In this document: positions 2,609-60,041 of the stretch, in pieces
Position numbering within the stretch: the first letter of the stretch is position 1
Layout of the letters: each line of letters opens with the position of its first letter
Assembly: GCA_944320495.1 (NCBI GenBank)
Contig: CALUHR010000013.1
Span: 62,001 to 126,000, forward strand
DNA: 64,000 nt
Direction of reading: 5' to 3'
Source of the DNA: Candidatus Methanomethylophilaceae archaeon
GTDB taxonomy: Archaea; Thermoplasmatota; Thermoplasmata; Methanomassiliicoccales; Methanomethylophilaceae
Made by a program: the position numbers and the translations under genes
Notes under the pieces: generated by a model
What the model was told of the DNA's origin: nothing
Databases searched by the model: none
Seen by the model: only the letters and a program-made list of their open reading frames with translations

Positions 2609-2660
2609 CGGTCATCGCCGGGATGGGGCGGACGCCCCGCCCCGGCTATTCTCATCAGAC

Positions 2661-3032
2661 TCGGTCGTCCCACTCGGCGAAGAGTCTGGCTATGCCCTTC
2701 TTGGCCACGGACCAGCAGGGGACTCCGCCGATGAGGACGGCCACCTTGATGGCCTCCAGGATCTCCTCCTTGGTGGCCCCGTAGTTCTTGGCCACCCTCG
2801 CCTGGGCGTAGACGCAGTCCTCGCACATCCTTACCGCGACGCACGAGAGCGCCATCAGCCTCTTGGTCTTCCTGTCGATGGCCCCGTCCTCGACCATGAC
2901 CCTGTCCATCGTGTGCAGGGTGTCGATGAAGGACGGATCCAGCTCCCTGATCGCCTTCAGCGTGTCTGGCGCGAACCCGCCCATGCCGCTGCACATCTGC
3001 CCGAACTTGTCTCCTCCGCATTCCTGGGACAT
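2661..3032 (-). CDS. Carboxymuconolactone decarboxylase/AhpD-like protein
   Basis: About 123 residues of the CMD/AhpD fold, with the redox motif CEDCVYAQ around residue 65. AhpD relatives use this CxxC as an alkylhydroperoxidase or thiol-disulfide centre; the usual histidine after it is replaced by glutamine, so the function is unsure. I chose ATG 3032 because a TATA-like GTTATC lies about 25 bases upstream, which suggests a leaderless mRNA; an ATG at 3089 would add 19 unlikely residues. The frame meets CGA at 2661-2663, two codons before TGA at 2655-2657; CGA is taken as the stop. Confidence 0.8.
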
Positions 3033-3184
3033 GCGTACGGAATCAGTGGGCGGGCAGATAACGGTTGCCCGTCGTGGGACTGGATTCAACCCCCGTTCAC
3101 ATCCGGCCCCTCGAAGTGATGGGCAGACCCTGTGAACATCGTGGGATCCCCGATCTACAATTGCATATTAACATTCGTAACTAT

Positions 3185-3199
3185 CAAATTATTTAAATA
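3185..3199 (+). promoter_or_regulatory. TATA box of the aIF1A-RIO1-KsgA operon
   Basis: An AT-rich block, AAATTATTTAAATAG, in an otherwise GC-rich sequence lies about 35-45 bases before the aIF1A start. It is the only strong TATA-like element before the gene string that runs from 3230 to 8132. The rest of the gap back to 3033 shows no gene. Confidence 0.6.
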
Positions 3200-3229
3200 G
3201 AGAATCCCTTCATGGGTCCCTTATAAGTG

Positions 3230-3565
3230 ATGACCATGGTAGACAACCAACCGCTGGAGAGCCCCGATGCGGATGTCACCCGCGTTCGTCTTCCGAACAT
3301 CAAGGAGAACGAGATGTTCGGCATAGCCGACCAGCTGCTGGGCGCATCCAAGATCAAGGTCATGTGCGAGGACGGAGTGTCCCGCGTCGGCCGCATCCCC
3401 GGGAAGATCAAGAAGAGGATGTGGATAAGGGAGGGAGACCTCCTCATCGTGTCCGTCTGGGACTTCCAGCCGGACAAGTGCGACGTCCGCTTCAGGTACA
3501 CCCGCACGCAGGCCGTCAACCTCAGCAAGAGGGGCAAGGTCCCGAAGAACCTCGACATATTCTGA
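3230..3565 (+). CDS. eif1A: Translation initiation factor 1A (aIF1A)
   Basis: A 111-residue protein matching archaeal aIF1A: a short acidic N-terminus, then an OB-fold (S1-like) domain from RLPNIKENEMFG to the conserved GRIPGKIKKRMWIREGD and VWDFQPDKCDVRFRY. It binds the small ribosomal subunit A site and helps start-codon selection. Starts are possible at GTG 3227, ATG 3230 and ATG 3236; 3230 is preferred. It ends in TGA eight bases before RIO1, and no in-frame CGA is present. It is the first gene of the translation and ribosome operon. Confidence 0.96.
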   Translation: MTMVDNQPLESPDADVTRVRLPNIKENEMFGIADQLLGASKIKVMCEDGVSRVGRIPGKIKKRMWIREGDLLIVSVWDFQPDKCDVRFRYTRTQAVNLSKRGKVPKNLDIF

Positions 3566-3573
3566 GAGGTTCC

Positions 3574-4916: not shown

Positions 4917-4925
4917 GGCGACCCC

Positions 4926-6152
4926 ATGGAGGACTGGATCTACGAGAACCTGGAGACCGCCCGCGCCCTCGCTTCCGAGGGACTGTGCGACAGGTGCCTG
5001 GGCCGCATGTTCGGCAAGGTCGGCACCGGCATGACCAACGACGAGCGCGGACGCATGGTCCGCGAGGCTCTCGCGGAGGAGGGAGACTGCCCTCCCGCAG
5101 TGTCGCCCTGTCCCCTGTGCGAGGACATCTTCGACCTGCTCCCCCGCTTCGCCGAGAACGTGGCGGAGGCGGTGAACCCCATAGAGTCCGACAACTTCCT
5201 CGTCGGCACCAAGGTCGAACCCGAGATCGCCGAGCGCGAGAGGGCCCTGTGGGAGAAGCACCAGCTCCAGAGCCCGGAGGCCATCAAGTCCGAGCTCAAC
5301 CGCGAGATCGGCAAGCTGGCACTCCCCATGATCCACCGCCCGGTGGAGTTCAAGAACCCCCAGGTGGTCGCCCTGGTGGACACCCGCTTCGGCGAGGTCA
5401 AGCTGGACATCGCCCCCCTCTTCATCGCCGGCCGCTACAACAAGTACAGCCGCGAGATCCCCCAGACCATATGGCCCTGCAGGGAGTGCCACGGCAAGGG
5501 ATGTCCCCACTGCCACGGCAAGGGCAAGATGTACGAGACCTCGGTGCAGGAGATCATCGGGGACATCGCCCTGGAGATGGCCGACGGGAAGGAGCACTTC
5601 TTCCACGGCATGGGCCGCGAGGACATCGACGCGCGCATGCTCGGTGACGGGAGGCCCTTCGTCCTGGAGATCTCCCAGCCCAGGAGGAGGTTCATAGACC
5701 TGGACGAGCTCGAGAGGAGGTCCAGCGCAGGCGACATGGCAGCGTTCAACTCCCTGCACTTCGTCCAGCGCGAGGCCGTCGAGAGATACAAGGGTGCCGC
5801 GTCCGACAAGGTCTATCGCGTGCGCGTTAAAGCAGACGGCAAAGTTAATAAAGAGGCAGTAGTTGACGTCGCCTTATCGTTCAAGGACGCCGATATAGAA
5901 CAGAGGACTCCACGCCGTGTCGAGCACAGAAGGGCCGACCTGGTCAGGAAGAGGAGGATCCACTGGGTGACGGCGGACTCCTTCGACGGGGACCGGTTCG
6001 ACCTCGAACTCGAGACCGACTCCGGCACGTACGTGAAGGAGTTCGTGTCCGGGGACGACGGCCGCACTCACCCCAACTTCTCTGAGAGGCTTGGGATCCA
6101 GTGCGTCGTCGAGGCCCTCGACGTATTGGCGATTGACTATCACGAACCACGA
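4926..6152 (+). CDS. pus10: tRNA pseudouridine(54/55) synthase Pus10
   Basis: A 408-residue Pus10, which makes pseudouridine 54 and 55 in the T-loop of tRNA. The N-terminal region has CDRCLGRMFG and CPLC, the insert has paired cysteines CRECHGKGCPHC, the catalytic region is GREDIDARML (aspartate near residue 235), and the conserved end is GTYVKEFVSGDDGRT then LDVLAIDY. The frame meets CGA at 6150-6152, in the sequence CGAGGGATT eleven bases before the L21e start, where a stop plus ribosome binding site is expected. With the standard code it runs to 6794 through L21e and RpoF in another frame. All 408 codons were scanned and this is the first CGA. Confidence 0.93.
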
Positions 6153-6162
6153 GGGATTCACA

Positions 6163-6798: not shown

Positions 6799-7350
6799 GT
6801 GGAAGACTACGCCTACATCCTCGACTGGCTGCCGACCGGTGCCACCGGCGGCGGATTCTCCAAACGCGAACCCCTCGTCTACGCCATCGGCGCGGAGGAG
6901 TTCAAGCTCTTCGAGCTCGTCCCGAAGGCTACCGCGCAGGTGACCATAGGCACCAGGACCTACATCGGGAAGGACACCCCCCAGATCAAGAGGGACGTTA
7001 TCGACCACGTCAAGAGGCGCATCGGTTTCAACGAGCTCACCAGCAACGCCCAGAGCGAGCTGGAGTACGCTGTGACCGACATAGTCATGGCCGACCAGGC
7101 CAGGTTCGTGAAGTTCTTCAACGAGGCCGAGGGGATCAGCCTCCGCAAGCACATGCTTGAGGAGCTGCCCGGCCTCGGGAAGAAGTCCATGGCCACCATC
7201 CTCGAGGAGAGGAAGAAGGGTCCGTTCAAGGACTTCGCAGACCTCACCGAGCGCACCGGCATCAAGGCGCCCGAGAAGTTCATCGTTTCGCGCATCGTGC
7301 TCGAGATCTCCGATCCCGACAGGAAGCGCTACATCTTCGTCTCCAGATGA
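6799..7350 (+). CDS. DUF655 helix-hairpin-helix protein
   Basis: A 183-residue DUF655 protein. The N-terminal half (EDYAYILDWLPTG) is the family signature, with an OB-like segment, and the C-terminal half carries a helix-hairpin-helix region LPGLGKKSMATIL (about residues 122-134). DUF655 proteins are nearly universal in archaea next to rpoF and ksgA and are thought to bind nucleic acid, but no function is established. The start is GTG at 6799, nine bases after the rpoF stop. It overlaps ksgA by ATGA. Confidence 0.9.
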   Translation: MEDYAYILDWLPTGATGGGFSKREPLVYAIGAEEFKLFELVPKATAQVTIGTRTYIGKDTPQIKRDVIDHVKRRIGFNELTSNAQSELEYAVTDIVMADQARFVKFFNEAEGISLRKHMLEELPGLGKKSMATILEERKKGPFKDFADLTERTGIKAPEKFIVSRIVLEISDPDRKRYIFVSR

Positions 7351-8132
7351 GCACCGCCAGAGAGCTCATGGCCTCCGCGGGAGTCGTCCCGAAGAAGAGC
7401 AAGGGGCAGAATTTTCTGATTGACGACCGCGTGGCGGACCGCATCGTCGGCTACGCCGGCATCACGCCCTCCGACAGGGTGCTGGAGATCGGCCCCGGGT
7501 TCGGCGTCCTCACAGATAGGCTCGCCGGCATGGGATCGAGCCTCACGTGCATCGAACTTGATACCAAGCTCGCATCCTACATCAGATCGACCTACGGCGA
7601 CCGCCTCACGCTCATCGAGGGCGACGCGGTCAAGGTCCCCTTCCCGGAGTTCGACGTCCTCGTCAGCAACCTGCCGTACAGCGTCTCGACCCCCATCATC
7701 TTCAAGCTCCTGGACCGCCCGTTCAGACGCGCCGTCGTCATGGTCCAGAAGGAGTTCGCCGACCGCATGGTCGCGGACGTCGGCAGCCCCGAGTACTCGA
7801 GGCTCACCGTCAACCTGTTCTACCGCGCCGAGTGCGAGATACTCGAACCCGTCCCCGCGTCCAGGTTCGACCCCAGGCCCAAGGTTGACTCCGCCGTAGT
7901 CGGCATAACGCCGAGACCCGCGCCGTTCGAGGTCCTCGACGAGCGCACGTTCTTCAAGGTGACCGAGGCCTGCTTCAACCAGCGCAGGAAGAAGATCGGC
8001 ACCGCCCTCAGGAACTACCGTCTGGTGGAGTCGTCCGAGAACATACCCTACAGGGACGACCGCATAGAGGACCTCCGTCCGGTGGAGATCGCCGAGATCG
8101 CTGACGCGGTGTTCCTGACCAGCAGACAGCGA
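7347..8132 (+). CDS. ksgA: rRNA adenine dimethyltransferase KsgA/Dim1
   Basis: A 261-residue enzyme that dimethylates two adjacent adenines near the 3' end of 16S rRNA. Motifs: GQNFL (about 20-24), the SAM-binding EIGPGFG (47-53), and catalytic NLPY (about 107-110); the C-terminal helical domain ends near EIADAVFLTSRQ. The frame then meets CGA at 8130-8132, followed by a run of arginines and glycines unlike KsgA tails, to TGA at 8169-8171. I take CGA as the stop. Codons before it were scanned and none is CGA. It overlaps DUF655 by four bases. Confidence 0.94.
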
Positions 8133-8202: not shown

Positions 8203-8919
8203 ATGAGGCACGACCATATCGCCAGACGCATCCTCGTCTTCGCGATGGGTCTTCTGGTGATCTCGCTGAGCATCGGATTCATCACGAAGGCGTCCCTCGG
8301 GACCCCTCCGATCTCCTCCATCCCCTACAGCCTGTCACTGATCTTCCCATCGCTGACGCTCGGCAACTTCACCATCCTCTACAGCCTGCTGCTCGTGTTC
8401 CTGCAGCTCGTCATCCTCGGGAAGGAGGCGGACAAGCTCAGCCTCGGTCTCCAGGTCATCATATCATTCGTGTTCGGGTACTTCATCGACTTCGGGCTCA
8501 TGGTGCTGGGCGACTTCGCGCCAGACGCCTACTGGGAGCAGGTCGTCTGCGTCCTGATCGGATGCTTCGGACTCGCCCTTGGGGTCTATCTGCAGATCAT
8601 CGCCGACTTCACCATGGTCCCAGGGGACGGCTTCGCCTACGCGCTCTCGGTGAAGATCAAGAGGAAGCCCTACAGGGTCGTCCGCGTCTGCTCGGACGTG
8701 ACGATGATCGTCATCGCCGCCCTGCTCGGCTTCATCGCCATGGGCGGGACCGGAGGGGTGCGCGAGGGCACCGTCATCTGCGCGCTCCTGATCGGCACCA
8801 TAGCGGGAGTCTACTTCAGCAAGCTGAGGTGGCTCACCGTCAGGCTCTTCCCGGAGGATGCCCAGGAGACCGTAGTCACCGCCGAACCCGCGGGGGGATC
8901 CGGTGCCAGCGGACAGTGA
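8203..8919 (+). CDS. YczE/YyaS/YitT-family membrane protein
   Basis: A 238-residue integral membrane protein with about five to six helices. The N-terminal GLLVISLSIGFITKASLGTPPISSIPYSLS is typical of the YczE/YyaS family, and a later loop MVPGDGFAYALS repeats the pattern. The transport role of this family is not established. ATG 8203 is preferred over the in-frame TTG at 8191. The 3' end overlaps the MarR gene by 17 bases, so the two are probably one operon, the regulator possibly controlling the membrane protein. Confidence 0.8.
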   Translation: MRHDHIARRILVFAMGLLVISLSIGFITKASLGTPPISSIPYSLSLIFPSLTLGNFTILYSLLLVFLQLVILGKEADKLSLGLQVIISFVFGYFIDFGLMVLGDFAPDAYWEQVVCVLIGCFGLALGVYLQIIADFTMVPGDGFAYALSVKIKRKPYRVVRVCSDVTMIVIAALLGFIAMGGTGGVREGTVICALLIGTIAGVYFSKLRWLTVRLFPEDAQETVVTAEPAGGSGASGQ

Positions 8920-9346
8920 CATCCTGGCCGTGGCCCGCATGCTCCGCATCGCGGGGCGCGAGGTCACGAGACGCCGCGACGCCCATGCCGCCAGCCTCGG
9001 GCTGACATCGTCCCAGGCGGATGCGCTCACGTTCATCCGCGAGCATCCGGGATGCATGATCGCCGACCTCGGGGCCTATTCAGGCTCCTCGCACCAGGCG
9101 GCCAGGACCCTCGTCGAGAGGCTGCGGGAGAGGGGACTGGTCGAGGTCTCCGTATCGGACAGGGACGCCCGCGCAAGGGTCCTCGAGATAACCCCCCGCG
9201 GAATACTCCTGCACGACAGGTTCCTCGCCATGGGCGCGGAGTCCTTCGGCAACATCAGGGAATCCTTCGACGAGGGCGAGGTCAGGGACCTCAGGGACAC
9301 CTTGGAGAGGTTGATGGCGCTCCTCGGTCTGGAGAGGACGGTCCGA
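8903..9346 (+). CDS. MarR-family transcriptional regulator
   Basis: A 147-residue winged-helix protein. The recognition region reads SSQADALTFIREHPGCMIADLGAYSG then SSHQAARTLVERLRERGLVEVSVSDRDARARV, with the typical wing ending in L-x-I-T-P-R-G. MarR proteins are dimeric repressors that sense small ligands. The start is GTG 8903 after GGGGGAT. The frame meets CGA at 9344-9346, six codons before TGA at 9362-9364; the domain is already complete, so CGA is taken as the end. No earlier CGA occurs in the gene. Confidence 0.87.
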
Positions 9347-9368: not shown

Positions 9369-9950
9369 ATGTCATCGAACATGGATCTCGAGAGGTTCAG
9401 AGAGCTGATGGCGAGGGACGGAAGGATCGTCTTCCCCTCCGAGGACGTAGGCGCGTTCTTGAACGAGGCGGCCGACAGGTCCCGCCGCATCACCATGGAC
9501 CTCAACACCGAATACCACACGATGGAGGAGATCCGCTCCATCATGTCGGAGCTCATATGCGAGCCCGTGGGCGAGGGGTTCAGATTGTTTCCTCCGTTCC
9601 ATGCGGACTTCGGCATGAACATCCACATCGGAAGGGACGTGTTCATCAACGAGGGGTGCTGCTTCCAGGACCAGGGAGGAATCTGGATAGGCGACGGATC
9701 GATGATAGGTCAGCAGGTCGTCATGGCCACCCTCGACCACGACCTGGACCCGGAGCACAGATATGACATGTTCCCGGGGCCGATTCACATCGGCAGGAAC
9801 GTCTGGGTCGGTGCCCATGCGACGATACTCAGGAACGTGACCATAGGCGACGGGGCCGTCGTGGCGGCCGGTGCGGTGGTCACGAGGGATGTCCCGCCGA
9901 ACACGGTCGTCGCCGGGGTGCCAGCGAAAGTCGTGAAGACCGTGGATCGA
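9369..9950 (+). CDS. Left-handed beta-helix sugar O-acetyltransferase (maltose/galactoside type)
   Basis: A 193-residue hexapeptide-repeat acyltransferase with the N-terminal Mac-type helices, the acceptor site FHADFGMNIHIG, the catalytic histidine in ATLDHDLDP, and C-terminal hexapeptide turns ending in AAGAVVTRDVPPNTVVAGVPAKVV. These enzymes acetylate sugars with acetyl-CoA. The frame meets CGA at 9948-9950 right after PAKVVKTVD, where the family normally ends. With the standard code it stays open to 11246, across the whole GTPase gene in another frame. Codons before it contain no CGA. Confidence 0.9.
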
Positions 9951-11221: not shown

Positions 11222-13633
11222 ATGGAAACCGCGGAGATCAGGATAATCAGCACGTCGTCCGCCACCCTGGATGAGGAGCCCGTAGTAGAGATCTACGGCA
11301 AGGCCAGGGACGGCAGGTCCGTGACCGTCCTGGTCCGCGGGTTCCATCCGTACCTCTACGGGGTGGAGGTCCCGGAGAAGCTGGAGCGCCAGCTCTCCGA
11401 GGACCCCGAGGTCGTCTCGGTCGAGCACCATCCCCTCCTCTTCAGGGGGAGGAACGTCGATGCGCTGAGGATCACGATCAAGAGTCCCTGGAAGGTCTCA
11501 GACATGCGCAGCAGGCTCCGCGCCAACGGCGTCGAGTCCCTCGCATCCGACATCCCGTTCAACCACCGCTACATCTACGACCAGGACATGGGCGCCTGCA
11601 TCCGCGTGACGGGCGAGCCCGTGGACCGCGGGTACTTCACCGACCTGACGATCGAGCTGTCCTCGTTCGAGAACGTGGACCCCTTCGACCCCGGCCTGAA
11701 GACGCTGTCCTTCGACATCGAGAACAGCGTCGAGCACGATTTCCTGTACTGCATCTGCTCCGTGGTCCATGAGAACGGGACCATGCGGGCCTGCGACCCC
11801 ATCTACGGCACCGAGCCGCAGATCATCCAGGCCTTCTCCGACCTCATCAGGAGGGAGGACCCGGACGTCATCACCGGGTACAACATCGAGAACTACGACA
11901 TCCGCAAGATCGAGGAGCGCGCCAAGGCCAATCGCATGAAGGATGCGATGCCCTGGGGCCGCGACGGCAGCCAGCCGAGGCTGCGCAACGACCGCTTCTG
12001 GCGGGTGAGAGGGCGCATCGTGTGCGACGCCTGGTGGGCCGCCCGCAGAGAGCTCCATCCCAAGCAGGAGACCCTCAACGCGGTCTCCAAGGAGCTCCTC
12101 GGAGAGACCAAGCTGGACGTCGACCCCCGCCACATGGACCAGGAGTGGAGGGACAACCGCGCGAAGGTCCTCGAGTACTGCACCAAGGACGCGGAGCTGG
12201 CACTGCGCATCCTGAACGAGGTGGAGACGGTCCGCAAGGGTATGGACCTGGCGGCGGTGTCGAAGCTGTCGGTGGAAGACGTCCTCTCGTCCGGATCCTC
12301 GCAGCTCGCCGACTCGCTGCTCATCCGCGCGGCGGACCGCGCGAACGTCGCCGTCCCCCAGATGGGCAAGCGCACCAGGGACGACGAGCAGATCGAGGGG
12401 GGATACGTGCACGACATCAAACCGGGACTGTACCACTGGGTCTGCGTCCTGGACTTCAAGTCCATGTACCCGTCCACCATCATCGCCAAGAACATCTGCT
12501 TCACCACGCTCTCCCCCGACGGGGAGATCGTCGCCCCGTCAGGCACAAGGTTCCTCTCCAAGGAGAAGCGCCTCGGGCTCCTGCCGATGATCCTCCAGGG
12601 CCTCATGGACCAAAGGGATTCTATCAAGAGGCAGATGAAGCAGACGACGGACGAGCACGAGCGCAGATACCTGGACGGACTGCAGGCGGCCGTCAAGGTG
12701 CTGATGAACACATTCTACGGGGTGTTCGCCTCATCCTTCTACAGGTTCACGGACAAGAGCATCGGTGCCGCGATAACATCGTTCGCGCGTGCCAACGTCA
12801 AGGGCATCATCGGCGAGCTGCAGTCGGAGGGTCACCATGTGGTGTACTCGGACACCGACTCCGTCTTCGTCCAGTCGCCGAAGGACGACATGGACGGCGC
12901 CATAGGGTTCGGGACGGCGATGGCCGATCGCTACTCCCGGGACGGCGGCACGCTGGAGTTCGAGAAGATCCTCGAGCCCCTGTTCACCCACGGCAAGAAG
13001 AAGAGGTACGTCGGCCGCGTGGTATGGCCCGTGAGGCAGGAGGACCTGCTGGTGCGCGGATACGAGAGCAGGAGGACCGACTCCTTCGACCTCCAGGACC
13101 GCCTCCAGACAGAGATGTTCGCATGCATACTGGACGAGCGCAACGAAGACGCCCTGGCGCTTGCCAGGAAGGCGATCCAGGACACACTGGCCGGACGGGT
13201 GGACCCTTCGGACCTGGTGATATCCAAGACATGCAAGGGGCTAGATGCCTACGAGAACCCCGACCGCATGGCGAACGTCCAGGCGGCCAAGAAGATGATC
13301 GAGCTAGGGTACGACTTCATCCCGGGCATGAAGGTCTCGTGGATCGTCACCGACGCCAAGTCCGCCCCCATGAGGGTGGAGCCATACATCAGCGGTCCCC
13401 AGTTCACGGCGAAGCCCGACTACCGCTACTACGCGGAGCGTCTGGCGAAGATGGCCGGCATGGTCACAGATGTGCTTGGATGGGGCGAGAAGGACCTCAT
13501 GATGGGCAGCCAGCAGGCCACCCTCCTGGACGGCGGGATGTTCTCGTCCAAGGAGTCCGACGCCCCGCAGAGGGAGCCTCCGAAGGCCCCCAAGCCCAAG
13601 TCCAAGGTCCGGAGCCTTGACGAGTTCTTCCGA
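11222..13633 (+). CDS. polB: Family B replicative DNA polymerase
   Basis: An 803-residue PolB. Exonuclease motifs: FDIE (about 164), YNIENYD (II) and YCTKD (III). Polymerase motifs: A, DFKSMYPS (about 411); B, KVLMNTFYG (about 492); C, YSDTDS (about 541); then KKRYVG. The last residues, VRSLDEFF, form a PCNA-interacting (PIP) box, which in archaeal PolB is normally the extreme C-terminus. The next codon is CGA at 13631-13633. With the standard code the frame would run to 14251 across the opposing TetR gene. The part of the gene that I scanned had no in-frame CGA. Confidence 0.95.
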
Positions 13634-13636
13634 TCG
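13631..13636. other. CGATCG palindrome: shared terminal CGA codons of polB and the tetR-like gene
   Basis: The six-base palindrome holds an in-frame CGA for polB on the plus strand (13631-13633) and an in-frame CGA for the TetR gene on the minus strand (13634-13636). Both protein families end just before it. A TGATCA at this spot would give two ordinary stops, the arrangement expected for abutting convergent genes. Confidence 0.75.
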
Positions 13637-14167
13637 CGACGCGAGCCTCGGACGGAGCGTCTCCCCCATCATCCTCAGCGTGATATCCGCCATCTCCTCC
13701 GGAGGGTCGGACATGCCCCTGTCGAACCACAGAACGAACCATGCCATCATCCCGCCGAGATGGTACTCCATCCGGTACATGGACGGGACGTCGCCTCCGT
13801 CTGTCGGGAAGTGCTCCCTCAGAACGGGGAGGAGCATGGGCGTGAGACCGCGGGAATGCAGGACGATCATCTCGTCGCGCTTCGCGTAGAACGAGGAGAA
13901 TATCGTCCCGACGTACGCCTTGACGGTCTCCCATCCGTCCATTTCGCTCGCCGCCCTGCTGATAGGCCGCATCGCACCTTCGTAGATGTACGACACGACC
14001 TCGTCAACCGACCCGAACCTGCGGTAGAACGACGTGCGGTTCATGCCCGCCTCCCGGGTCAGCATGCTCACGGTGACCTCGTCGTAAGTATGGTCCCTCA
14101 GCAGCCTTACCAGGGACGAGGCGAGAGCATCCGAGGTCCCATCACGAATATGAGACATATTAGGCAT
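13634..14167 (-). CDS. TetR/AcrR-family transcriptional regulator
   Basis: About 177 residues. The helix-turn-helix is VTVSMLTREAGMNRTSFYRRFG (roughly residues 32-53), followed by a helical ligand domain ending near MMGETLRPRLAS. Starts are possible at 14212, 14167 and 14158; the TATA position favours 14167 or 14158. The frame meets CGA at 13634-13636; with the standard code it continues to 13304 antisense to polB. It probably represses itself and the divergent flavin-protein gene through the inverted repeat at its start. Confidence 0.85.
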
Positions 14168-15250: not shown

Positions 15251-15709
15251 ATGCTCGTACTGGACAGCTCCTACTTCTTCTCCTCCGACTCGCTCCCTGA
15301 CGAGGAGCACGTGTGCCCACCCGGCGTCATCCGCGAACTGGAGAACCACGGGGACCCCCGTCTGTCACTCTGGGGCGACATGGTCCGCGTGTCCGACTGC
15401 TCGAAGGGGTCCCTCAAGCGCGTCACAGAGGCCGCCCGCGGCAGCGGGGACCTGGGAAGGCTCTCCCCCGTCGACATGACCGTGCTGGCTCTCGCCCTGG
15501 ATGTGAACGGCACCATCCTCTCCGACGACTACTCCATCCAGAACGTGGCCAGGATACTCGGCATCCCGTTCAGGGCTGTCGGCACCGCCGGCATCAGGAA
15601 GGTCGCCAAGTGGAACTACCAGTGCATCGGCTGCCACAGGTGGTACAAGGAGAAGCTGCCGGAGTGCCCGGTGTGCGGATCGCCGATGCGGGCATGCAGG
15701 AAGAGGCGA
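15251..15709 (+). CDS. nob1: Nob1-type PIN endonuclease for 16S rRNA maturation
   Basis: A 152-residue protein with an N-terminal PIN domain (acidic residues in VLDSSYF, SPVDMTVLALALD and ILSDDYSIQN) and a C-terminal zinc ribbon CIGCHRWYKEKLPECPVCG. Nob1 cleaves the 3' end of pre-16S rRNA together with Dim2 and Rio1. A GGTTATCC element lies about 30 bases before the ATG at 15251. The frame meets CGA at 15707-15709, immediately abutting the TGA of the convergent reductase (CGATCA). With the standard code it continues to 16792 antisense to that gene. Confidence 0.88.
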
Positions 15710-29304: not shown

Positions 29305-29307
29305 TCG
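29302..29307. other. CGATCG palindrome: shared terminal CGA codons of proC and the radical SAM gene
   Basis: CGA 29302-29304 is in the proC frame; CGA on the minus strand (29305-29307) is in the frame of the convergent radical SAM gene. Both frames otherwise run on for more than 360 bases into the opposite gene. This has the same geometry as at 13631 and 60036. Confidence 0.75.
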
Positions 29308-40515: not shown

Positions 40516-41273
40516 CGGATGACCCCCGGTCTGTAGCCGATGTCGAGGATCCCCTCAATGACCCTGCGGACGTCGTCCGACGCCCTGTCGGCATCTTCGC
40601 GGGACATGACCCCTCCGTCCCTAGTCTCGACCATGTGCCAGGAGTGGTCTGCGATGACGATGTCTCCCTCCGCGGAGGCGGCCATGGCGATGTAGTCCCC
40701 GGGCCCCCTCCTGCCCTCGTGCATCGGCCAGAGGTAGGCGGCGATGACCTTGCCCCCTGGATCCCTGGCCTTGTTCACGGGAAACTCGACCATGTCCTCC
40801 AGAAGGAACGGCTCCGACGGGGAGCCCACATCCGTGTAGGACGATGAGTCGTGCCTGATACCCAGGCGGCGCACGGCGCTCAGGACCCTCGCGTCGGCGG
40901 TCATGTACGGCGCACGCGAGCAGACGGGCCTGCCCACCCTGTCGGAGACAGCCGAGAAGGAACGTGCCAGCGTGCCGCGGAGATGGTCATCCCCCAGGGA
41001 AGTCAGGTCCTCGTGGTCGTAGCCGTGGACGCCTATCGAATGCCCGGCGGCGCGTGCGCAGTCTATGACCTCGGAGGTGCGGCCCTCGAAGAACAGCGTG
41101 CCGCGGATGCCGATGCCGTCGAGCAGATCCAGTATCGCGCCCAGACCCCTCTCCGAGGACGAGAAGCGGGGGGCGTCGCCGAAGCCCCTGTCCAGGGACC
41201 CGGCGGCGACCCTCCCCGGGACGCGCACGTTGACGTCCCGGTCTATGTCGGCGGTGTAGTACAGCCGTCTCAT
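40515..41273 (-). CDS. Polysaccharide deacetylase-like (NodB-type) protein
   Basis: A 252-residue protein resembling carbohydrate esterase 4: YYTADIDRDVN with the metal-binding aspartates, GTLFFEGR, HSIGVHGYDHEDL with the two histidines, and SRAPYM. It probably removes acyl groups from a sugar or nucleoside. ATG 41273 overlaps the AMP phosphorylase stop by four bases, which ties it to the AMP pathway operon. The frame ends at CGA 40515-40517, which overlaps the next ATG (CGATG); with the standard code it runs to 40224. Confidence 0.82.
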
Positions 41274-44021: not shown

Positions 44022-44948
44022 TCGCTCCCTTGAGAATATCCCGTCGCCCAGCTGCCTCACCATGACGTCATACACCGAGCCGGGACTCATCATGCCCAGC
44101 TCCGTGACGATCGCGTCTATGTACGCGGCGGGGGTGCTGTCGAACACTGGATTGAATATCTTTACCGAGTCGCGGACCTCCCCGGGCCTCACGACCTCGG
44201 AGATTTCGCGCTCCTCTATGGTCACCGAATCGCCGAACATTGTCATCGGCGAGAACTTGTAGGTCTCGGCGCAGGCGTAGAGGTGCACCCTGGCCTCGTG
44301 GGCGGCCAGCGCAAGCTGGGACGTCCCGACCTTGTTGATGAGGGCCCCCTGGGACGTGACGGTGTCGGCACCCACGAACACCTTGTCGACCTTGCGCATC
44401 ACCGAGCGCACCGCGCTGTCGATGATCAGCGTGACGTCCACGCCGGCGTCGGCCAGGTCGTTGACCGTCAGGATGCCCTGCCTCCAGGGACGGGACTCGG
44501 TTGCGTACACCCTGATGTCCTTCCCCTGCCTGTGGGCCTCCTTGATGACGCCTAGGGCGGCGCTGCTGTTGCAGTGCGTCATGATGACATCGCCGTCCTG
44601 GATCCTGCGTGCTCCGATGCGGGCGATCTCCTCCACCGCCCTCTCGGACCTTTCGCAGAATGCCTTCGCGTTGGCCAAGACCAGCGACCTTGCCTCCTCG
44701 AGGGAGGATGCCTCGGACGCGCCCCTGACCGTGGCGTGCAGCCCGTTCCACAGCGAGACCGCGGTGGGCCTCGATGCGAGGATCGTGTCGCTCGCCCCCT
44801 TCAGATCGGCGAGGAACCCCTCCAGGGTCCCCCCGGTGTACGTGTCGGCGAAGTCGCCCAGCGCGGACGCTCCCGCCCTGGCGATCCTCCCGGCCCCGCG
44901 AATCCTCATGCTGCGGATCAGCTCCGCAGTCTCCTCCGCCGTGGTCAC
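44022..44948 (-). CDS. Ribose-1,5-bisphosphate isomerase (eIF2B-alpha/delta-like)
   Basis: A 308-residue eIF2B-related isomerase: MRIRGAGRIARAGASALGD, THCNSSAALGVIKEAH, VYATESRPWRQG, DSAVRSVMRKVDKVFVGAD and the C-terminal FNPVFDSTPAAYIDAIVTELG. It turns ribose-1,5-bisphosphate into ribulose-1,5-bisphosphate for RuBisCO. The GTG 44948 fits a TATA-like CTTATAGG about 20 bases upstream. The frame meets CGA at 44022-44024 and again at 44016-44018 (CGATG with rbcL); with the standard code it continues to 43821. Confidence 0.92.
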
Positions 44949-45666: not shown

Positions 45667-46157
45667 TTGCGTTGATAGACCCGACGGACAAGATGCGTTC
45701 GGAGGCCAAGATAGGCCGTGGAAGGGCTGAGAGCATCGTAGGGAACCTCAGATCGTTGAAAGTCCCTCTGCCTGCTTACAGCGAAGCAATCTGCAAAACC
45801 GGGGACTACTATCAGAAAGACAGAGATGCACGCCTGAGACTCTACGAGGAACTGGATCGCCTGAGGAGCAGGGGATTCGTCGAAGTGGAGTACATCAAAG
45901 ACCCAGAGACGCTGAGGCTCGCTTCGGAGATGGCAAGATCACGTACGGATGAACGTGACAAGATGTCGATCATGGATTCCCTGATCATCGCGACGGCGAC
46001 GTCCGATCCGGAATGCAGGACGTTCTACACCACCGATGACAAGTGCCTCCATAACAGCGAAGTCTGGGAGTTGAGCAGAGAGTTCAGGGAGAGACACGAG
46101 TTCGACAACGCGTCGATCTCCGTCCAGATGCTGTGGAAGACCAGAGCCTCTGCGTGA
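45633..46157 (+). CDS. PIN-domain protein, possible VapC-like toxin
   Basis: A 174-residue protein with PIN-like acidic residues: SYIDTCYLIALID at the start, an internal SEAICKTGDYY, SIMDSLIIATATS (about 108-120) and FYTTDDKCLHN. PIN proteins are RNA nucleases and are common VapC toxins. The overlap with the upstream gene suggests a toxin-antitoxin or regulator-nuclease pair. It is longer than typical VapC (about 130). It ends in TGA; no in-frame CGA was found. Confidence 0.68.
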   Translation: MAVSYIDTCYLIALIDPTDKMRSEAKIGRGRAESIVGNLRSLKVPLPAYSEAICKTGDYYQKDRDARLRLYEELDRLRSRGFVEVEYIKDPETLRLASEMARSRTDERDKMSIMDSLIIATATSDPECRTFYTTDDKCLHNSEVWELSREFRERHEFDNASISVQMLWKTRASA

Positions 46158-46658
46158 TTCAAACATAGTACCCAACATCGAGATCTTCCACGGCTCGATG
46201 TGACAGTACCCCCCTGGGTTCCTGTCCAGGTACCTCTGGTGGTACTCCTCGGCCCTCGCCCACTGGGTGAGCGGTCCGCACTCGACATGGAACTCCGGAT
46301 ACCTCGGGGCCTCCCTCGAGAGGACATCTATCACCGTCCCCTCGGACTGGAGATCGGACCAGTAGACCCCGGTCTGGTACTGTATGCCGACGTCGTTCCC
46401 CTGGCGCCTCTCCTGAGTCGGGTCTATCAGGAACAGGAACACCTCCAGGAGGTCCTCCAGGCTCAGGGCCGAGGGATCGTACTCGACGCGCACCGCCTCC
46501 CGGTACCCGAACCTCCCCGAGCACACGAGCATGTAGTCCGGGATGTAGTGGGGGTCGCCATTGGCGTAGCCGCATTCGGTGGAGAGGATCCCGGGGATGT
46601 CCTCCAGCGCCCTCTCCAGGCCCCAGAAGCATCCGCCCGCGAGATGTATGACGCTCAA
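46113..46658 (-). CDS. msrA: Peptide methionine sulfoxide reductase MsrA
   Basis: About 181 residues. The active-site motif is GGCFWGLERAL near the N-terminus, followed by GYANGDPHYIPDYMLVCSGRFGYREAVRVEYDP, the QTGVYW segment and the C-terminal GGYCHIEPWK. It repairs oxidised methionine. The likely start is TTG 46658, overlapping the thyX stop. The first in-frame CGA is 46113-46115, some 30 residues after GYCHI, giving a 45-base convergent overlap with the PIN gene; the standard-code end is 45939. This is the least clear of the CGA ends. Confidence 0.87.
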
Positions 46659-47311: not shown

Positions 47312-48021
47312 TCCTGTCCCCCCTTCCAGATCATGTCGCGGACCCTGTCCATCCTCTCGCGGTCCATGAGGTCCGCCAGGCGCACCTTGCGCACCTGGGC
47401 GTCGCCCAACAGCCTGCAGATGCCCTCCACGTGCGCGTCCCCGACGATCACGACCATGTTGGAGTGCGTCTTGGCGGCCTCCAGGATCTGCTCGGCCATG
47501 TGCTGGTTGCGCTCGTCGATGAGCTTCCTCACCAGCGTTGGGTACTTCCGGCGCATGCCCTCGATGTAGGCCTCCTCGTTGTCGGCGAAGCTCCTCTGCA
47601 CGCTGGCGACCTTGCGCTTGCCACCGATGTTGTCCGAGATGCCGGAGAGGCGGTAACGTATGCGCTCCTTTGTGGACATCTCCCTCCACATCTCGTCCAT
47701 CACGCGCATGGCGTCCGTGTCAATCGGGATAATCTCGGCGCCCGCGAGCCTGCCGGCGTTCACCGCGGCGAGGAACTCCCCTCCGAGCTGCGCACCGTGC
47801 TCCTCGGACATGCGCTGCTGGTACCTCGCGGTCTGCATGTAGATGGGTGACGGCTCCGGGCCGTCGCCCGACGGTTCCTTCCCCTCGGCCTCGCGGGTCA
47901 TGGCGTTGAGCCTGCCCACATCCAGCTCCAGGAGGACCGCGTCCGGCCAAGTGTTCTTGACGATGAAGGCCACGGGCTCCGCCAGGTTGAACACGTGCCC
48001 GGTGCCCACGATCGTGATCAT
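47308..48021 (-). CDS. TraB/PrgY-family protein
   Basis: About 237 residues with the TraB-type motifs IVGTGHVFN at the start, LLELDVGRL, and VIVGDAHVEGI (about 185-195), each with conserved histidine or acidic residues suggesting a metal-dependent hydrolase. ATG 48021 lies about 25 bases from a TTTAATAT element, which suits a leaderless transcript; ATG 48042 adds seven residues. It is divergent from the HAD gene and overlaps thyX by four bases. Confidence 0.82.
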   Translation of the reverse strand: MITIVGTGHVFNLAEPVAFIVKNTWPDAVLLELDVGRLNAMTREAEGKEPSGDGPEPSPIYMQTARYQQRMSEEHGAQLGGEFLAAVNAGRLAGAEIIPIDTDAMRVMDEMWREMSTKERIRYRLSGISDNIGGKRKVASVQRSFADNEEAYIEGMRRKYPTLVRKLIDERNQHMAEQILEAAKTHSNMVVIVGDAHVEGICRLLGDAQVRKVRLADLMDRERMDRVRDMIWKGGQE

Positions 48022-48070
48022 GGTCCGGGGATGCTCAGACATATTAAAGAAAGAATGGATAGGGCGCAGC

Positions 48071-48730
48071 ATGCGCAAGTACGACCTCGTCTGCTTCGAC
48101 ATGGACGGAACCCTCACCACCGTACGCAGCTCCTGGAGATGGATCCACGACTACCTGGGCGTGGACAACGAGCCGTCCTATCAGGCGTTCATCAACGGGG
48201 AGATAGACGAGAACGAGTTCATGCGCAGGGACATCCACCTCTGGATGGAGAACAGGCCCGGGATCACCATCGGCGACATCGCCCACATCTTCCAGACCCT
48301 GCCACTGATCGGCGGAATACAGGAGACCGTCGCCTGCCTCAAGGACAACGGAATCGCCTGCGTCATCGTCAGCGGTGGGATCGACATCGCCGCGAAGATG
48401 CTCGCGGACGAGTTCGGCTTCGACGAGTACATCGCGGACAGCCTCGAGACCGATTCCGAGGGCAGGCTCACCGGCGAGGGTATCAGGAACCTGAACCTCC
48501 GCGACAAGGGGATCAACGTCAGAGGGTACATCGAGAAGTACTTCACGACCCCCGAGCGCACCGTGTCCATCGGCAACTCGTACACGGACATACCGATGTT
48601 CCAGAACTCCGGACTCTCCATCGCGTTCAACCCGACGGACGAGTACACATCGGAAGCGGCCACGCACACCGTGAACTCGGACAACATCGCGGACGTCCTC
48701 GACTTCATCATCGGGGACGGCGAGGAGCGA
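48071..48730 (+). CDS. HAD-family phosphatase, phosphoserine phosphatase-like
   Basis: A 219-residue HAD hydrolase: motif I FDMDGTLT (about 9-16), motif II VIVSGG (about 98-103), motif III lysine in LRDKGINVRG and motif IV GNSYTDIPMF. It resembles SerB-type enzymes, but the substrate is not fixed. The shared AT-rich block at 48040-48050 could serve as TATA for both divergent genes. It ends at CGA 48728-48730; TGA follows after one codon (CGATCGTGA). Confidence 0.87.
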
Positions 48731-51984: not shown

Positions 51985-52554
51985 ATGGAGTACGACCCCG
52001 ATGTCAGGATCTACGAGGATCCGGAGGTGTATCCGCCCTCGGACGACAGCATCCTGCTTATCGAATCGCTGGACGTTCATCCTGGGGAGAGGGTCCTGGA
52101 GATCGGGTGCGGATCGGGGGTGGTGTCCATCCACTGCGCCCTGAACGGATGCGACGTCACCTCTGGGGACATCAACCCCCGCGCCGTCGAGCTTACCCGC
52201 AGGAACGCGGAGGCGAACGGCGCCTACATAGACGTGGTGGAGACCGACGTCTACTCCGCCGTGGAGGGGAGGTTCGACACGATAGTGTTCAACCTGCCGT
52301 ACCTCCCGGTCGAGGAGGAGGGACTGCTGGAGAAGGCCTGGTCCGGAGGCCCTGATGGCCTCGGACCTCTGCCGAGGCTCCTGGAGGGAGCGGACGACCG
52401 CCTTCTCCCCGGAGGGAGAGTGGTGGTCGTCGTCTCGTCCCTGATGGACCGCGATGCTCTGGACGGGACCCTCGTGGGCTGGAGCCGGAGGGTCCTGGGG
52501 GAGCTCCCCCTGTTCTTCGAGAGGCTCTATGTCCTGGAGCTCAGGCGTCCGCGA
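51985..52554 (+). CDS. HemK2/Mtq2-type methyltransferase, probable aRF1 glutamine methyltransferase
   Basis: A 189-residue class I methyltransferase: the family start VYPPSDDSILL, SAM loop VLEIGCGSGVVSI (about 37-49), and the catalytic NPPY-type motif, here NLPYLPVEEEG (about 103). This short HemK form in archaea and eukaryotes methylates the GGQ glutamine of release factor 1. The frame meets CGA at 52552-52554 after VLELRRP; with the standard code it ends at 52635. The last 14 bases overlap the convergent transporter. Confidence 0.85.
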
Positions 52555-57674: not shown

Positions 57675-57792
57675 GGTTGAGAGTATCTGCACATCTGATA
57701 AGAGGTTTGGGCAGTGCGGTCGGGTTGGACGTCGTGGGATCCGCCTGCGGAGGTCGGGTGCATTTATCATCCCGTAATCGATACATATATTC

Positions 57793-59439
57793 ATGAAGAA
57801 GGTGAACACCAGCGGGCTGTCGTTCCGGGACATCCGCGAGGGAGGGAAGTACTACGTCGACAAATCTCTCCTCATCAAGGACATGCTTGATACGGACGAC
57901 CGTGGGGTCTTCCTCTACACCCGCCCCCGCAGGTTCGGCAAGACCACCAACCTCACCATGCTCGACGCCTTCTTCAACATCGAATACAAAGGGAACACAT
58001 GGTTCGACGGGCTCGCCATCTCCGAACACCCGGACTGCATGTGCCAGATGAGCAGATATCCTGTGATACTCCTCGACCTGAAAGACCTCGCGGCCGAGGG
58101 CAACAACGATTACGGAATCTTCGTATCGAGGGTGAAGAAGGTCCTGAGCGACCTGTACAACCGCTTCACCTACCTTCTCGACTCACCGAGGATCGGTGAC
58201 AGGGACAGGAGGCTCTTCGAATCCGTCCTGTACATGGATGCCGACGAGAACGTGCTCGCGGATGCCGTCAGGGACCTATCCAGGATGCTGCACCTCTTCC
58301 ATGGGGAGCGGACGGTCATCCTGGTGGACGAGTACGACCAGTCGATAACCCAGACGTTCGGCGATGCTTTGCAGGAGCGTGTCATCGGATTCCTGAGACT
58401 CCTGCTGTCCAGCGCACTGAAGTCCAACGGCGACCTCCAGATGGCCTACGTCACGGGCGTGATGCAGGTCGCTAAGGCAGGGTTCTTCTCCGGGATGAAC
58501 AACATCAGCATCAACAACACGTTCTCCGTAGAGTCGGACGAGCGCTTCGGTTTCACCGAACCGGAGGTCAGGGACATCCTGTCGTACTACGGCCATCCGG
58601 AGAAGTTCGACGAGGCGAGGGATTGGTACGACGGGTACCGCTTCGGGGACGCCGAGGTGTACAACCCGTTCAGCATAATGACCTACGTCCAGAGGGGATT
58701 CCAACCGGACAGCTACTGGCGCGACTCGAGCAGGAACACCCCAATGTTGTGGATGCTGGAGAGGGCCGGCGCCATAGGGTTGCAGGCCGTTGCGGACCTG
58801 GTCAACGGCGGGACCATGGTGTCCGAGCTCCATCGGACGGTGAGCTACGACGAGATGAGACTCAACGACCCCGTCGACCTGCTCTCTCTGATGGTCATGA
58901 CCGGATACCTGAACGCCATCCCTAAGGGGGACGGACTCTACGAGCTGTCCGTCCCCAACAGGGAGGCCATGGGCATCGTGGATTCGCTCCTGAGCAGGAA
59001 CAGGCGCATCGGGAACGATGCGTTCGAGAGGTTCAACGCCGCGGTGCTGGACGGGGATGCGGCGGCCATGACGGAAGTCCTCCAGAGCGTCCTCGCCGAT
59101 GGCAGCTACTTCTCGCTGAGGGACGAGTCGTCGTATGAGAACATAGTCCTCACGATGATGCACGGGATGCTTCGCGGGTACAGGATAACCTCCCAAAAGG
59201 AGTCCGGGAACGGGAGAGCGGACCTCGTGCTGGAACTGAGGGACGAGGGGTCCGTTCCCATAATCCTCGAGCTGAAGGTGTCGGACTCGGAGGGCTCCCT
59301 CGATTCCGACGCTGAGAGCGCGATAGCACAGATCCACGACAAGAACTACTATCTCGGCATGAGGGGCGACGTCATACTGATCGGCCTCGCGTTCCGCGGC
59401 AAGCTCGTCCGCGGGAAGGTCGAGAGGCTCCGCCTGCGA
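57793..59439 (+). CDS. AAA-ATPase-like protein with PD-(D/E)XK nuclease domain (DUF1703 type)
   Basis: A 548-residue protein. The start NTSGLSFRDIREGGKYYVDKSLLIKDML and Walker A region RPRRFGKTTNLTML, Walker B VILVDEYDQSI (about 176-186) define the AAA-ATPase-like family; the C-terminal end has the nuclease core RADLVLEL ... PIILELKVS. These proteins are mobile, often multicopy, and of unknown role. A CATTTATCA element precedes ATG 57793. The frame meets CGA at 59437-59439 after the nuclease core; the standard-code end is 59496, across the next start. Confidence 0.85.
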
Positions 59440-59492
59440 GGACGGACGCGCAGACCGCCGGCCATTCGGGAAGGGGATGACATGGAGGACCC

Positions 59493-60038
59493 ATGACCGC
59501 GCGCGACGATCCCGACGTCAGGGACAGCAGGCTGATGAGCAGGATACTGCGCCACTGCCCCGAGAGATACGGGGTCGCCCTGGACCGCGACGGGTGGGCA
59601 TCGGTGGAGGGGCTCAGCAGGGGCTCCGGACTCCAGGCGGAGCGCATAATCCGCATAGCGGAGACCAACACCAGGTACGAGCTGTCCCCCGACGGAGGGA
59701 GGATAAGGGCGCTCCACGGCCACAGCGTCGACGTCGGATACGGGGCGCCCGTGTCCCCTCCGGACGTGCTCTACCACGGCACCAGCAGGGAGAACCTGAA
59801 GGGGATCATGGCCTCGGGTGCGATACTCCCGATGAGGCGCACCATGGTCCACCTGTCGGTCTCCGTGGAGAGGGCGGAGGAGGTCGGCAGGAGGCACGGT
59901 GAGCCCGTCGTCATATCCGTGGATGCCAGGAGGATGGCCGGGAGCGGGTTCGAGTTCTTTCTCTCGGGGGACGGGGTGTACCTCACGGAGAGGGTGCCGA
60001 CGGGATACTTCCTGGTCGTGACCGATATGGGGGATCGA
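59493..60038 (+). CDS. kptA: RNA 2'-phosphotransferase KptA/Tpt1 (second copy)
   Basis: A 181-residue Tpt1 of classical form: LMSRILRHCPERYGVALDRDGWASVEGL, then VLYHGTSRENLKGIMASGA and MVHLSVS, with VISVDARRMAGSGFEFFLSGDGVYLTERVPTGYF. These segments hold the expected arginine and histidine NAD/phosphate contacts, so this copy is the more likely active enzyme. The frame meets CGA at 60036-60038; with the standard code it ends at TAG 60083, inside the convergent gene. Confidence 0.9.
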
Positions 60039-60041
60039 TCG
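60036..60041. other. CGATCG palindrome: shared terminal CGA codons of kptA and the winged-helix gene
   Basis: CGA 60036-60038 is in the kptA frame; CGA on the minus strand (60039-60041) is in the frame of the convergent winged-helix gene, which otherwise runs to 59349 antisense to kptA. This is the third copy of this arrangement in the window. Confidence 0.75.

What the first reader, a model, noticed from the sequence alone, without database searches (positions are those of the whole stretch)
2655..60041. CGA appears to act as a stop codon in this genome
Seen: 25 of about 69 complete genes carry an in-frame CGA exactly where the protein should end, while no TGA, TAA or TAG is nearby in many of them. 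Plus strand CGA positions: 6150, 8130, 9344, 9948, 13631, 15707, 29302, 39502, 48728, 52552, 59437, 60036. Minus strand (lowest base): 2661, 13634, 14703, 24617, 29305, 32763, 36621, 39501, 39964, 40515, 44022, 46113, 60039. With the standard code many frames continue for up to 1,300 bases through neighbours in a wrong, arginine/proline-rich frame. Known: no genetic code that I know of uses CGA for termination; CGA is arginine, or tryptophan in some bacteria. Inference: CGA is read by aRF1 (YGA termination), or lacks a tRNA, or CGA is edited to UGA in mRNA. In 18 of the 25 cases the next base is T, hinting at a context effect.
Basis: partly seen in the sequence, partly recalled or inferred. 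Interest (0 to 1): 0.97.

Follow-up and report, generated by a model that had tools for sequence, protein, structure and literature searches.

The report
A fourth stop codon in archaea
In this gut methane-producing archaeon, about a quarter of the predicted genes end at the triplet CGA, which normally encodes arginine, and CGA is almost never found inside genes, so CGA is likely read as a fourth stop signal; this would be the first sense codon known to have become a stop in a cell's own genome rather than in an organelle.

Summary
CGA behaves like TGA: 315 occurrences have coding sequence upstream only, 5 on both sides; among 64 codons only CGA, TGA, TAA and TAG stand out so. CGA-ended proteins stop where homologues stop (72 of 79 within 10 residues; TGA genes 260 of 285), and those homologues end in TGA or TAA. 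A near relative has TGA where this genome has CGA. An outgroup uses CGA as ordinary arginine.

Best mechanism: aRF1 likely terminates at UGA and CGA. In the family the residue equivalent to human eRF1 Arg68 is Met or Leu; published simulations predict that losing Arg68 removes most discrimination against first-position C. A tRNA-Arg(UCG) gene exists, but its anticodon arm is altered in all genus copies read. The aRF1 gene keeps an in-frame CGA at an invariant arginine (18 of 19 genus loci), so CGA must sometimes be read as arginine: a predicted autoregulatory sensor, like bacterial RF2. Termination, aRF1's role and autoregulation are inferred, not measured.

The parts
2661..2663 (-). CGA stop of gene 2661-3032 (123 codons)
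   Evidence: TGA two codons on
6150..6152 (+). CGA stop of gene 4926-6152, Pus10 pseudouridine synthase (Pfam Pus10_C)
   Evidence: run-on 214 codons
8130..8132 (+). CGA stop of gene 7347-8132, rRNA adenine dimethylase (RrnaAD)
   Evidence: run-on 13 codons
9344..9346 (+). CGA stop of gene 8903-9346
   Evidence: run-on 6 codons
9948..9950 (+). CGA stop of gene 9381-9950, hexapeptide-repeat transferase
   Evidence: run-on 432 codons
13631..13633 (+). CGA stop of gene 11222-13633, DNA polymerase B; abuts 13634(-) as CGATCG
   Evidence: run-on 206 codons
13634..13636 (-). CGA stop of gene 13634-14071, convergent with the preceding gene
   Evidence: run-on 110 codons
15707..15709 (+). CGA stop of gene 15251-15709, PIN-domain protein
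   Evidence: run-on 361 codons
24617..24619 (-). CGA stop of gene 24617-25804, NADH dehydrogenase subunit (NADHdh)
   Evidence: run-on 3 codons
29302..29304 (+). CGA stop of gene 28495-29304, pyrroline-5-carboxylate reductase; abuts 29305(-) as CGATCG
   Evidence: run-on 178 codons
29305..29307 (-). CGA stop of gene 29305-31029, B12-binding radical SAM protein
   Evidence: run-on 122 codons
32763..32765 (-). CGA stop of gene 32763-33440, Tpt1/KptA RNA 2'-phosphotransferase; CGATG overlap with next start
   Evidence: run-on 4 codons
36621..36623 (-). CGA stop of gene 36621-38522, FUSC_2 membrane protein
   Evidence: run-on 28 codons
39502..39504 (+). CGA stop of gene 38602-39504, EamA transporter; TCGA overlap with 39501(-)
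   Evidence: run-on 69 codons
39501..39503 (-). CGA stop of gene 39501-39953
   Evidence: TGA next codon
39964..39966 (-). CGA stop of gene 39964-40515, OmdA-like protein
   Evidence: run-on 104 codons
40515..40517 (-). CGA stop of gene 40515-41273, polysaccharide deacetylase; CGATG overlap with next start
   Evidence: run-on 97 codons
44022..44024 (-). CGA stop of gene 44022-44948, IF-2B family protein
   Evidence: run-on 67 codons
46113..46115 (-). CGA stop of gene 46113-46658
   Evidence: run-on 58 codons
48728..48730 (+). CGA stop of gene 47951-48730, HAD hydrolase; TGA two codons on
52552..52554 (+). CGA stop of gene 51985-52554
   Evidence: run-on 27 codons
59437..59439 (+). CGA stop of gene 57793-59439, AAA-ATPase with PD-(D/E)XK nuclease domain
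   Evidence: run-on 19 codons
60036..60038 (+). CGA stop of gene 59493-60038; abuts 60039(-) as CGATCG
   Evidence: run-on 15 codons
60039..60041 (-). CGA stop of gene 60039-60356
   Evidence: no Pfam match; run-on 230 codons

Best explanation
CGA is likely a fourth stop codon in this archaeon, predicted to be recognised by its single release factor aRF1, whose specificity would be UGA and CGA as well as UAA and UAG. Shown by sequence: CGA stands at the end of 413 of 1,668 called genes and is almost absent inside genes; homologues end at the same residue with TGA or TAA; a near relative has TGA where this genome has CGA. Inferred: (1) aRF1 has lost discrimination against cytosine at the first codon position, because the residue equivalent to human eRF1 Arg68, which holds the NIKS loop, is methionine (leucine in two of 50 loci) in the family loci read. 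(2) CGA rather than CAA or CAG became a stop because its competitor, tRNA-Arg(UCG), is altered in the anticodon arm in the genus. (3) CGA keeps a minority arginine meaning: the aRF1 gene itself carries an in-frame CGA at an invariant arginine, so a ribosome must sometimes decode it. When aRF1 is plentiful it would terminate on its own message at CGA; when it is scarce, tRNA-Arg(UCG) would win and full-length aRF1 would be made, a feedback loop working like the UGA in bacterial prfB but by read-through instead of frameshifting. (4) Once CGA terminates, TGA to CGA changes at gene ends would become nearly neutral and accumulate in GC-rich members, mostly in genes with weak codon bias.
For: Flank test over all 64 codons in G000 (coding upstream only / both sides): CGA 315/5, TGA 959/21, TAA 52/2, TAG 213/20; next is TTG 663/214; median ratio of sense codons 0.53. 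ISO4-G1 (400 kb): CGA 13/1, fourth after the standard stops; outgroup G018 (400 kb): CGA 90/111, ordinary. Called genes in G000: 1,183 TGA, 413 CGA, 53 TAA, 19 TAG. Protein ends within 10 residues of the homologue end: CGA genes 72 of 79 against ISO4-G1 and 43 of 50 against G018; TGA genes 260 of 285 and 164 of 192; the 79 ISO4-G1 homologues end TGA 73, TAA 6. One TGA/CGA difference between G000 and a relative 95.0-96.5% identical in DNA, protein 100% identical. Overlaps: 47 CGATG stop-starts; abutting convergent stops 13 CGA/CGA, 15 CGA with TGA, 1 TGA/TGA. CGA share falls from about 0.4 to 0.06 from low to high codon bias. 45,101 CGA stand in the other two frames of called genes. aRF1: CGA at codon 78 in 18 of 19 genus loci; preceding codon GCT/TCT in 18 of 18, although GCT is 4.7% of Ala and TCT 2.8% of Ser codons in G000. 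Family: 44 of 47 loci have a CGA in aRF1 from codon 12 on, 8.9 expected from local background; outgroup with Arg68: 4 of 5, 3.8 expected. Residue 68: Met 48, Leu 2 in 50 family loci; Arg in 5 of 5 outgroup loci. PMC5681627 section 7: wild-type eRF1 penalises first-position C by about 6 kcal/mol, the Arg68Ala mutant by 1-2. tRNA-Arg(UCG): 15 of 18 genus genes have a 31:39 mismatch and the other 3 have C33; 0 of 17 outside the genus have either. In SIG8 (L245) 12 of 20 called genes end in CGA, aRF1 among them; 7 of the 12 at homologue ends, 0 inside, 1 unclear, 4 without homologue.
Against: No protein, RNA or termination measurement exists here. Residue 68 is not the whole story: two same-order genomes have Asn68 (G020) or Gln68 (G017), and G020 shows 2 CGA of 48 Arg codons in the little sequence held, no clear depletion; Met68 relatives such as Methanoplasma have CGA inside genes and not at ends (42 inside, 0 at ends, 5 unclear or without homologue, 14 loci). 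A 4-bp anticodon stem helps another tRNA read a near-cognate stop (PMC13092985, passages), so the direction of the tRNA effect is uncertain, and 3 of the 17 outside tRNAs have a 27:43 mismatch, as do 2 of the 18 genus ones. SIG8, with the most CGA ends of any locus, has lost the aRF1 CGA (CGC), so the feedback is not obligatory. Codon 78 CGA and codon 25 CGA also occur in relatives without CGA ends, so the sensor is older than, or separate from, the gene-end use. Some in-frame CGA remain: a ribosomal-protein-like gene in ISO4-G1, and besides aRF1 four both-side cases in G000, among them the SIS-HAD junction. In ISO4-G1 CGA ends are few: 16 of 418 calls, one being the aRF1 codon, and 8 of 16 with a standard stop within 6 codons.
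Confidence: 0.86

Rival explanations
1. CGA is edited to UGA in the mRNA (C-to-U editing), so the code is standard and the stop is made after transcription.
For: A phrase search for 'CGA stop codon' returned only two plant mitochondrial genome papers (titles and abstract starts); that plant organelles make stops by editing is recalled. CGA has a context bias at +4 and +5.
Against: CGA is purged from the reading frame of nearly all genes, but 45,101 CGA stand in the other two frames of called genes; an RNA editor does not see frames, and site-specific editing would leave ordinary in-frame CGA elsewhere. The aRF1 CGA lies at an invariant arginine.
Confidence: 0.04
2. CGA is a starved, nearly unassigned codon: ribosomes stall there and are freed by rescue factors (Pelota/ABCE1, recalled), and aRF1 plays no part.
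For: tRNA-Arg(UCG) is altered in its anticodon arm in the 18 genus copies read and CGA is avoided in genes.
Against: Stalling at 413 gene ends would be costly (inference).
Confidence: 0.07
3. Assembly or base-calling artefact: true TGA written as CGA.
For: Most of the genomes are MAGs; the CGATC contexts could hint at a modified base.
Against: In-frame CGA inside genes is also missing, which miscalling cannot do. The pattern recurs in other assemblies, including, at low level, the isolate ISO4-G1 (identity from equal length 1,593,503 bp). A TCGA with CGA stops on both strands (39501-39504) cannot come from TGA on both.
Confidence: 0.01
4. CGA is plain arginine and proteins simply carry long, variable C-terminal tails.
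For: tRNA-Arg(UCG) exists; aRF1 needs CGA as arginine.
Against: Coding character is lost after CGA, and the tails are absent in homologues; CGA is otherwise nearly absent from genes.
Confidence: 0.02

Closest known systems
Sense-to-stop reassignments in organelles (AGA/AGG, UUA, UUG in mitochondria; UUA and UCA in peDinoflagellate plastids; PMC12574857, passages read)
   Same: A sense codon occurs at gene ends, matched by a changed release factor.
   Different: Those are small organelle genomes with bacterial-type release factors and, in the passages read on UUA, UUG and UCA, no cognate tRNA. Here: a 1.77 Mb cellular genome, archaeal aRF1, codon CGA, tRNA still present, and a retained arginine meaning. 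[quoted passage not shown]
prfB (RF2) autoregulation by in-frame UGA (PMC12421855, PMC13245932: search listing and abstract starts only)
   Same: An early in-frame codon that the release factor itself reads lies in its own gene and is conserved.
   Different: Here the codon is CGA, the frame continues unchanged, and the factor is of the archaeal/eukaryotic type.
Mimivirus/Megavirus class-I release factor gene with internal stops (PMC3521657, passages read)
   Same: eRF1/aRF1-type factor with an internal in-frame read-through codon in the weak context UGA-C; aRF1 codon 78 here is CGA-C.
   Different: Standard stop codons plus a frameshift, in a virus; here a sense codon in a cell's own gene.
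Context-dependent stop/sense codons in ciliates (PMC4967479, abstract start only) and pyrrolysine UAG in the same archaeal order (PMC4824259, whole text)
   Same: One codon with two meanings.
   Different: Those give standard stops an amino-acid meaning; here an amino-acid codon gains a stop meaning.

Membership tests
Sense-to-stop codon reassignment | Codon occurs at gene ends matching homologue ends | tested here: met
   72 of 79 and 43 of 50 CGA genes within 10 residues of the homologue end
Sense-to-stop codon reassignment | Codon absent inside genes | tested here: met
   5 both-side CGA in the genome against 315 upstream-only; the 5 include aRF1, so nearly rather than wholly absent
Sense-to-stop codon reassignment | Release factor altered in its codon-reading region | tested here: met
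   Arg68 equivalent is Met/Leu in 50 of 50 family loci, Arg in 5 of 5 outgroup loci; not unique, see G017 and G020
Sense-to-stop codon reassignment | Cognate tRNA lost | tested here: not met
   tRNA-Arg(UCG) present in the genus but altered; hence 'dual codon', not a clean reassignment
Sense-to-stop codon reassignment | Termination at the codon measured | not testable with these tools
   needs proteomics or in vitro release
Release-factor autoregulation (prfB type) | Conserved early in-frame codon readable by the factor in its own gene | tested here: met
   CGA at codon 78 in 18 of 19 genus loci and at codon 25 in 10 of 11 loci of a second clade; that aRF1 reads it is inferred
Release-factor autoregulation (prfB type) | Programmed +1 frameshift at that codon | tested here: not met
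   Frame continues unchanged after CGA, so only 'works like' can be claimed
Release-factor autoregulation (prfB type) | Synthesis falls when the factor is abundant | not testable with these tools
   needs a reporter or western blot
C-to-U edited stop codons | RNA differs from DNA at the site | not testable with these tools
   no RNA reads held; frame-specific purging of CGA argues against

The most novel reading that the evidence does not exclude
A whole archaeal family has a release factor that reads YGA: a sense codon is terminated in competition with its own tRNA, the family purges it from genes yet keeps it inside the release-factor gene as a self-sensor, at codon 25 in some clades and codon 78 in others, and in at least two clades it has spread to gene ends as a working fourth stop codon, the first natural one in a cellular genome and caught in transition.
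Probability: 0.6. Interest if true: 0.98.

Novelty: new variant of a known kind. Interest (0 to 1): 0.97.

Why it matters
Sense-to-stop changes are, in the papers found here, known only from small organelle genomes. This lineage would show the steps by which a cell with well over a thousand genes could take one: looser release factor, codon purged from genes, self-sensor in the factor's gene, altered tRNA, spread to gene ends. One member, ISO4-G1, has been isolated, so it is testable. It would also mean that standard annotation of these rumen and gut methanogens gives many genes wrong C-terminal tails, and that code-inference screens miss such cases: the Codetta paper says that it cannot detect new stop codons (PMC8629427, passages).

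Tried and rejected
Greedy longest-ORF reference sets from G007 and G018 were contaminated with wrong-frame ORFs in these GC-rich genomes and filled the internal-CGA tables with spurious rows; those tables were not used. Only the gene finder on was relied upon; the end counts were a first look (32 of 140 ends CGA in G000, 1 of 75 in the ISO4-G1 sample). In one search, 56 of 434 pairs (ISO4-G1) and 50 of 300 (G018) with more than 25 unaligned residues on both sides were dropped before counting. In one search the aRF1 fragment was left out. In one search, 47 of 50 family loci with a readable residue 68 were used; three low-GC loci (L224, L229, L237) were left out for lack of a fitting codon model, and all three have a CGA in aRF1. 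Counting the whole gene, L207 also has one, at codon 11, making 45 of 47. In one search one family genome (G041) gave a CCG tRNA and was dropped; genus genomes whose tRNA was not fetched were not read. G31S in the GTS motif was considered as the key change: among the sequences seen it is only in this species and its nearest relatives, while genus loci with G31 and CGA ends exist. Gln codons as further stops: CAA and CAG look like ordinary sense codons in the flank test, although CAA as a stop gains 3,128 in score. A single origin of CGA ends on the aRF1 tree is not shown: the label needs 11 changes, at least 7 forced, and 94 of 500 shuffles do as well, but 20-kb samples make 'none' unreliable.
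Full report
What was checked. The window is G000:C13:62001-126000 of a 1,768,794-base, 14-contig genome, 90.6% complete, 1.8% contaminated. With CGA neutral in scoring and allowed as a stop it,668 genes: 1,183 TGA, 413 CGA, 53 TAA, 19 TAG, and the total coding score rises from 259,396 to 276,758; in the same-order outgroup sample G018 (400 kb) the same change lowers it from 55,617 to 53,410, and in the ISO4-G1 sample (400 kb) it hardly moves, 58,882 to 59,049. With the model held fixed, CGA as a stop gains 15,187, while the other 13 codons tried gain at most 3,313. In the window 24 of 25 reader sites are recovered.

Test without gene calls. For every codon in all six frames I asked whether the 25 codons before and after look coding. 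In G000 CGA gives 315 upstream-only and 5 both-side cases, a ratio of 63; TGA 46, TAA 26, TAG 11; then TTG 3.1; the sense median is 0.53. In ISO4-G1 CGA is again among the four outliers (13 to 1); in G018 it is ordinary (90 to 111). Of the 5 both-side cases in G000 one is aRF1, one joins a SIS-domain protein to a HAD hydrolase, one is an ankyrin protein, and two are unclear.

Homologue ends. CGA-ended proteins stop where homologues stop as exactly as TGA-ended ones do: 72 of 79 against 260 of 285 in ISO4-G1, 43 of 50 against 164 of 192 in G018; 73 of the 79 ISO4-G1 homologues end TGA, 6 TAA. In the nearest named relative (L192, by matching positions the same contig as G008; 95.0-96.5% identical DNA) one gene with 100% identical protein ends TGA where G000 has CGA; two others end CGA in both.

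Signatures of a working but weaker stop. CGA forms stop-start overlaps (47 CGATG) and abutting convergent stops (13 CGA/CGA, 15 mixed with TGA, 1 TGA/TGA). T follows 54% of CGA and 29% of TGA stops. CGA's share drops from about 0.4 in genes of weak codon bias to 0.06 in the strongest, and a standard stop follows as the next codon in 6.1% of CGA and 3.2% of TGA genes. I infer that CGA terminates less well than TGA.

Relatives. G007 equals ISO4-G1 by length, 1,593,503 bp (PMC4824259, whole text). Of 61 named loci around aRF1, the 57 of 5 kb or more were classed by homologue ends. Genus, 20 loci: 25 CGA at ends, 22 inside of which 18 are the aRF1 codon, 8 unclear, 9 without homologue. Second clade (L223 COG_1, L230 and L240 Methanomethylophilus and allies), 11 loci: 13 at ends, 6 of them one gene junction shared by six genomes, 1 inside, 1 unclear, 2 without homologue. 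Methanoplasma and allies, 14 loci: 0 at ends, 42 inside, 2 unclear, 3 without homologue. Arg68 outgroup, 5 loci: 0 at ends, 57 inside, 2 unclear, 4 without homologue. Remaining 7: 1 at end, 5 inside, 1 without homologue; three low-GC loci among them could not be called well. On the aRF1 tree the two CGA-using groups are separate branches.

The release factor. G000 has one aRF1; a second, weak match to the family model looks like Pelota (name inferred). The alignment to human eRF1 chains puts Met65 of G000 at Arg68. It is Met or Leu in 50 of 50 readable family loci and Arg in 5 of 5 outgroup loci. Molecular dynamics (PMC5681627, section 7) found that Arg68 holds the NIKS loop and that Arg68Ala cuts the penalty for a first-position C from about 6 to 1-2 kcal/mol. 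That is a prediction on human eRF1, not on this protein, and Asn68 or Gln68 occurs in two other same-order genomes.

The self-sensor. In the genus the aRF1 gene has exactly one CGA, at invariant Arg78, in 18 of 19 loci, preceded by the rare GCT or TCT in 18 of 18 and followed by C in 18 of 18. Gene ends differ: T at -1 in 10%, C at +4 in 17%; +4 C is expected of a leucine codon, so the -1 signal is the stronger one. In the second clade the CGA is at codon 25 in 10 of 11 loci. Overall 44 of 47 family loci have a CGA in aRF1, 8.9 expected from local background; in the outgroup 4 of 5, 3.8 expected. The loci are related, so these are not independent events. Since only one aRF1 was found and its frame continues, CGA must sometimes be read as arginine; regulation is the inference.

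The tRNA. tRNA-Arg(UCG) is at G000:C13:413317-413390. Of 18 genus sequences 15 lack the 31:39 pair and 3 have C33 in place of U33; none of 17 outside the genus shows either. The genus has 31 genomes here, so 13 were not read in that call, three of which (G008, G036, G037) were seen with the same sequences as G000 or G023. Loop 32-38 in G000 is TTTCGGC, in most others CTTCGGA. Whether this weakens or tunes decoding is unknown.

Novelty. Searches in open PMC full text listed no report of CGA as a stop in an archaeon or other cell; preprints and most subscription papers were not searched, and long result lists were seen only in part. PMC12574857 (passages) calls its plastid case the first known sense-to-stop change outside mitochondria. 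PMC8629427 (passages) states that Codetta cannot detect new stop codons.

Noticed in passing
G000:C13:194143 (-), L040:13621-14718: One frame joins a SIS-domain protein (GmhA-like, name recalled) and a HAD hydrolase across an in-frame CGA with no start codon just after it: a candidate CGA read-through fusion.
   Followed up: partly
L223:1144, L226:1561, L228:1477, L230:1394, L231:1388, L240:1090 (+): A gene with a cmk-like tail (name recalled) is followed by CGA-NNN-ATG and a truB-like gene (name recalled) in the same frame in six genomes of the Methanomethylophilus-like clade.
   Followed up: partly
L245 (SIG8): 12 of 20 called genes end in CGA, including aRF1 itself, and its aRF1 codon 78 is CGC: perhaps the most advanced state.
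   Followed up: partly
L196, L239 and G001 aRF1: The NIKS motif reads NIRS.
   Followed up: no
G007:C1:225428 (+): An in-frame CGA inside a protein that looks like ribosomal protein L18e (name recalled) in ISO4-G1, the only both-side CGA of the flank test in the 400 kb sampled; the aRF1 CGA there fell under the threshold.
   Followed up: no
G000:C8:98213 (-): An ankyrin-repeat protein continues past an in-frame CGA into 155 further coding-like residues.
   Followed up: no
G000 genome: Back-to-back convergent stops such as CGATCG are common: 28 of the 29 abutting convergent pairs listed involve CGA; cause unknown.
   Followed up: no
G000 genome: TAG ends only 19 of 1,668 called genes, as expected where UAG is pyrrolysine (reported for the order, PMC4824259).
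   Followed up: no
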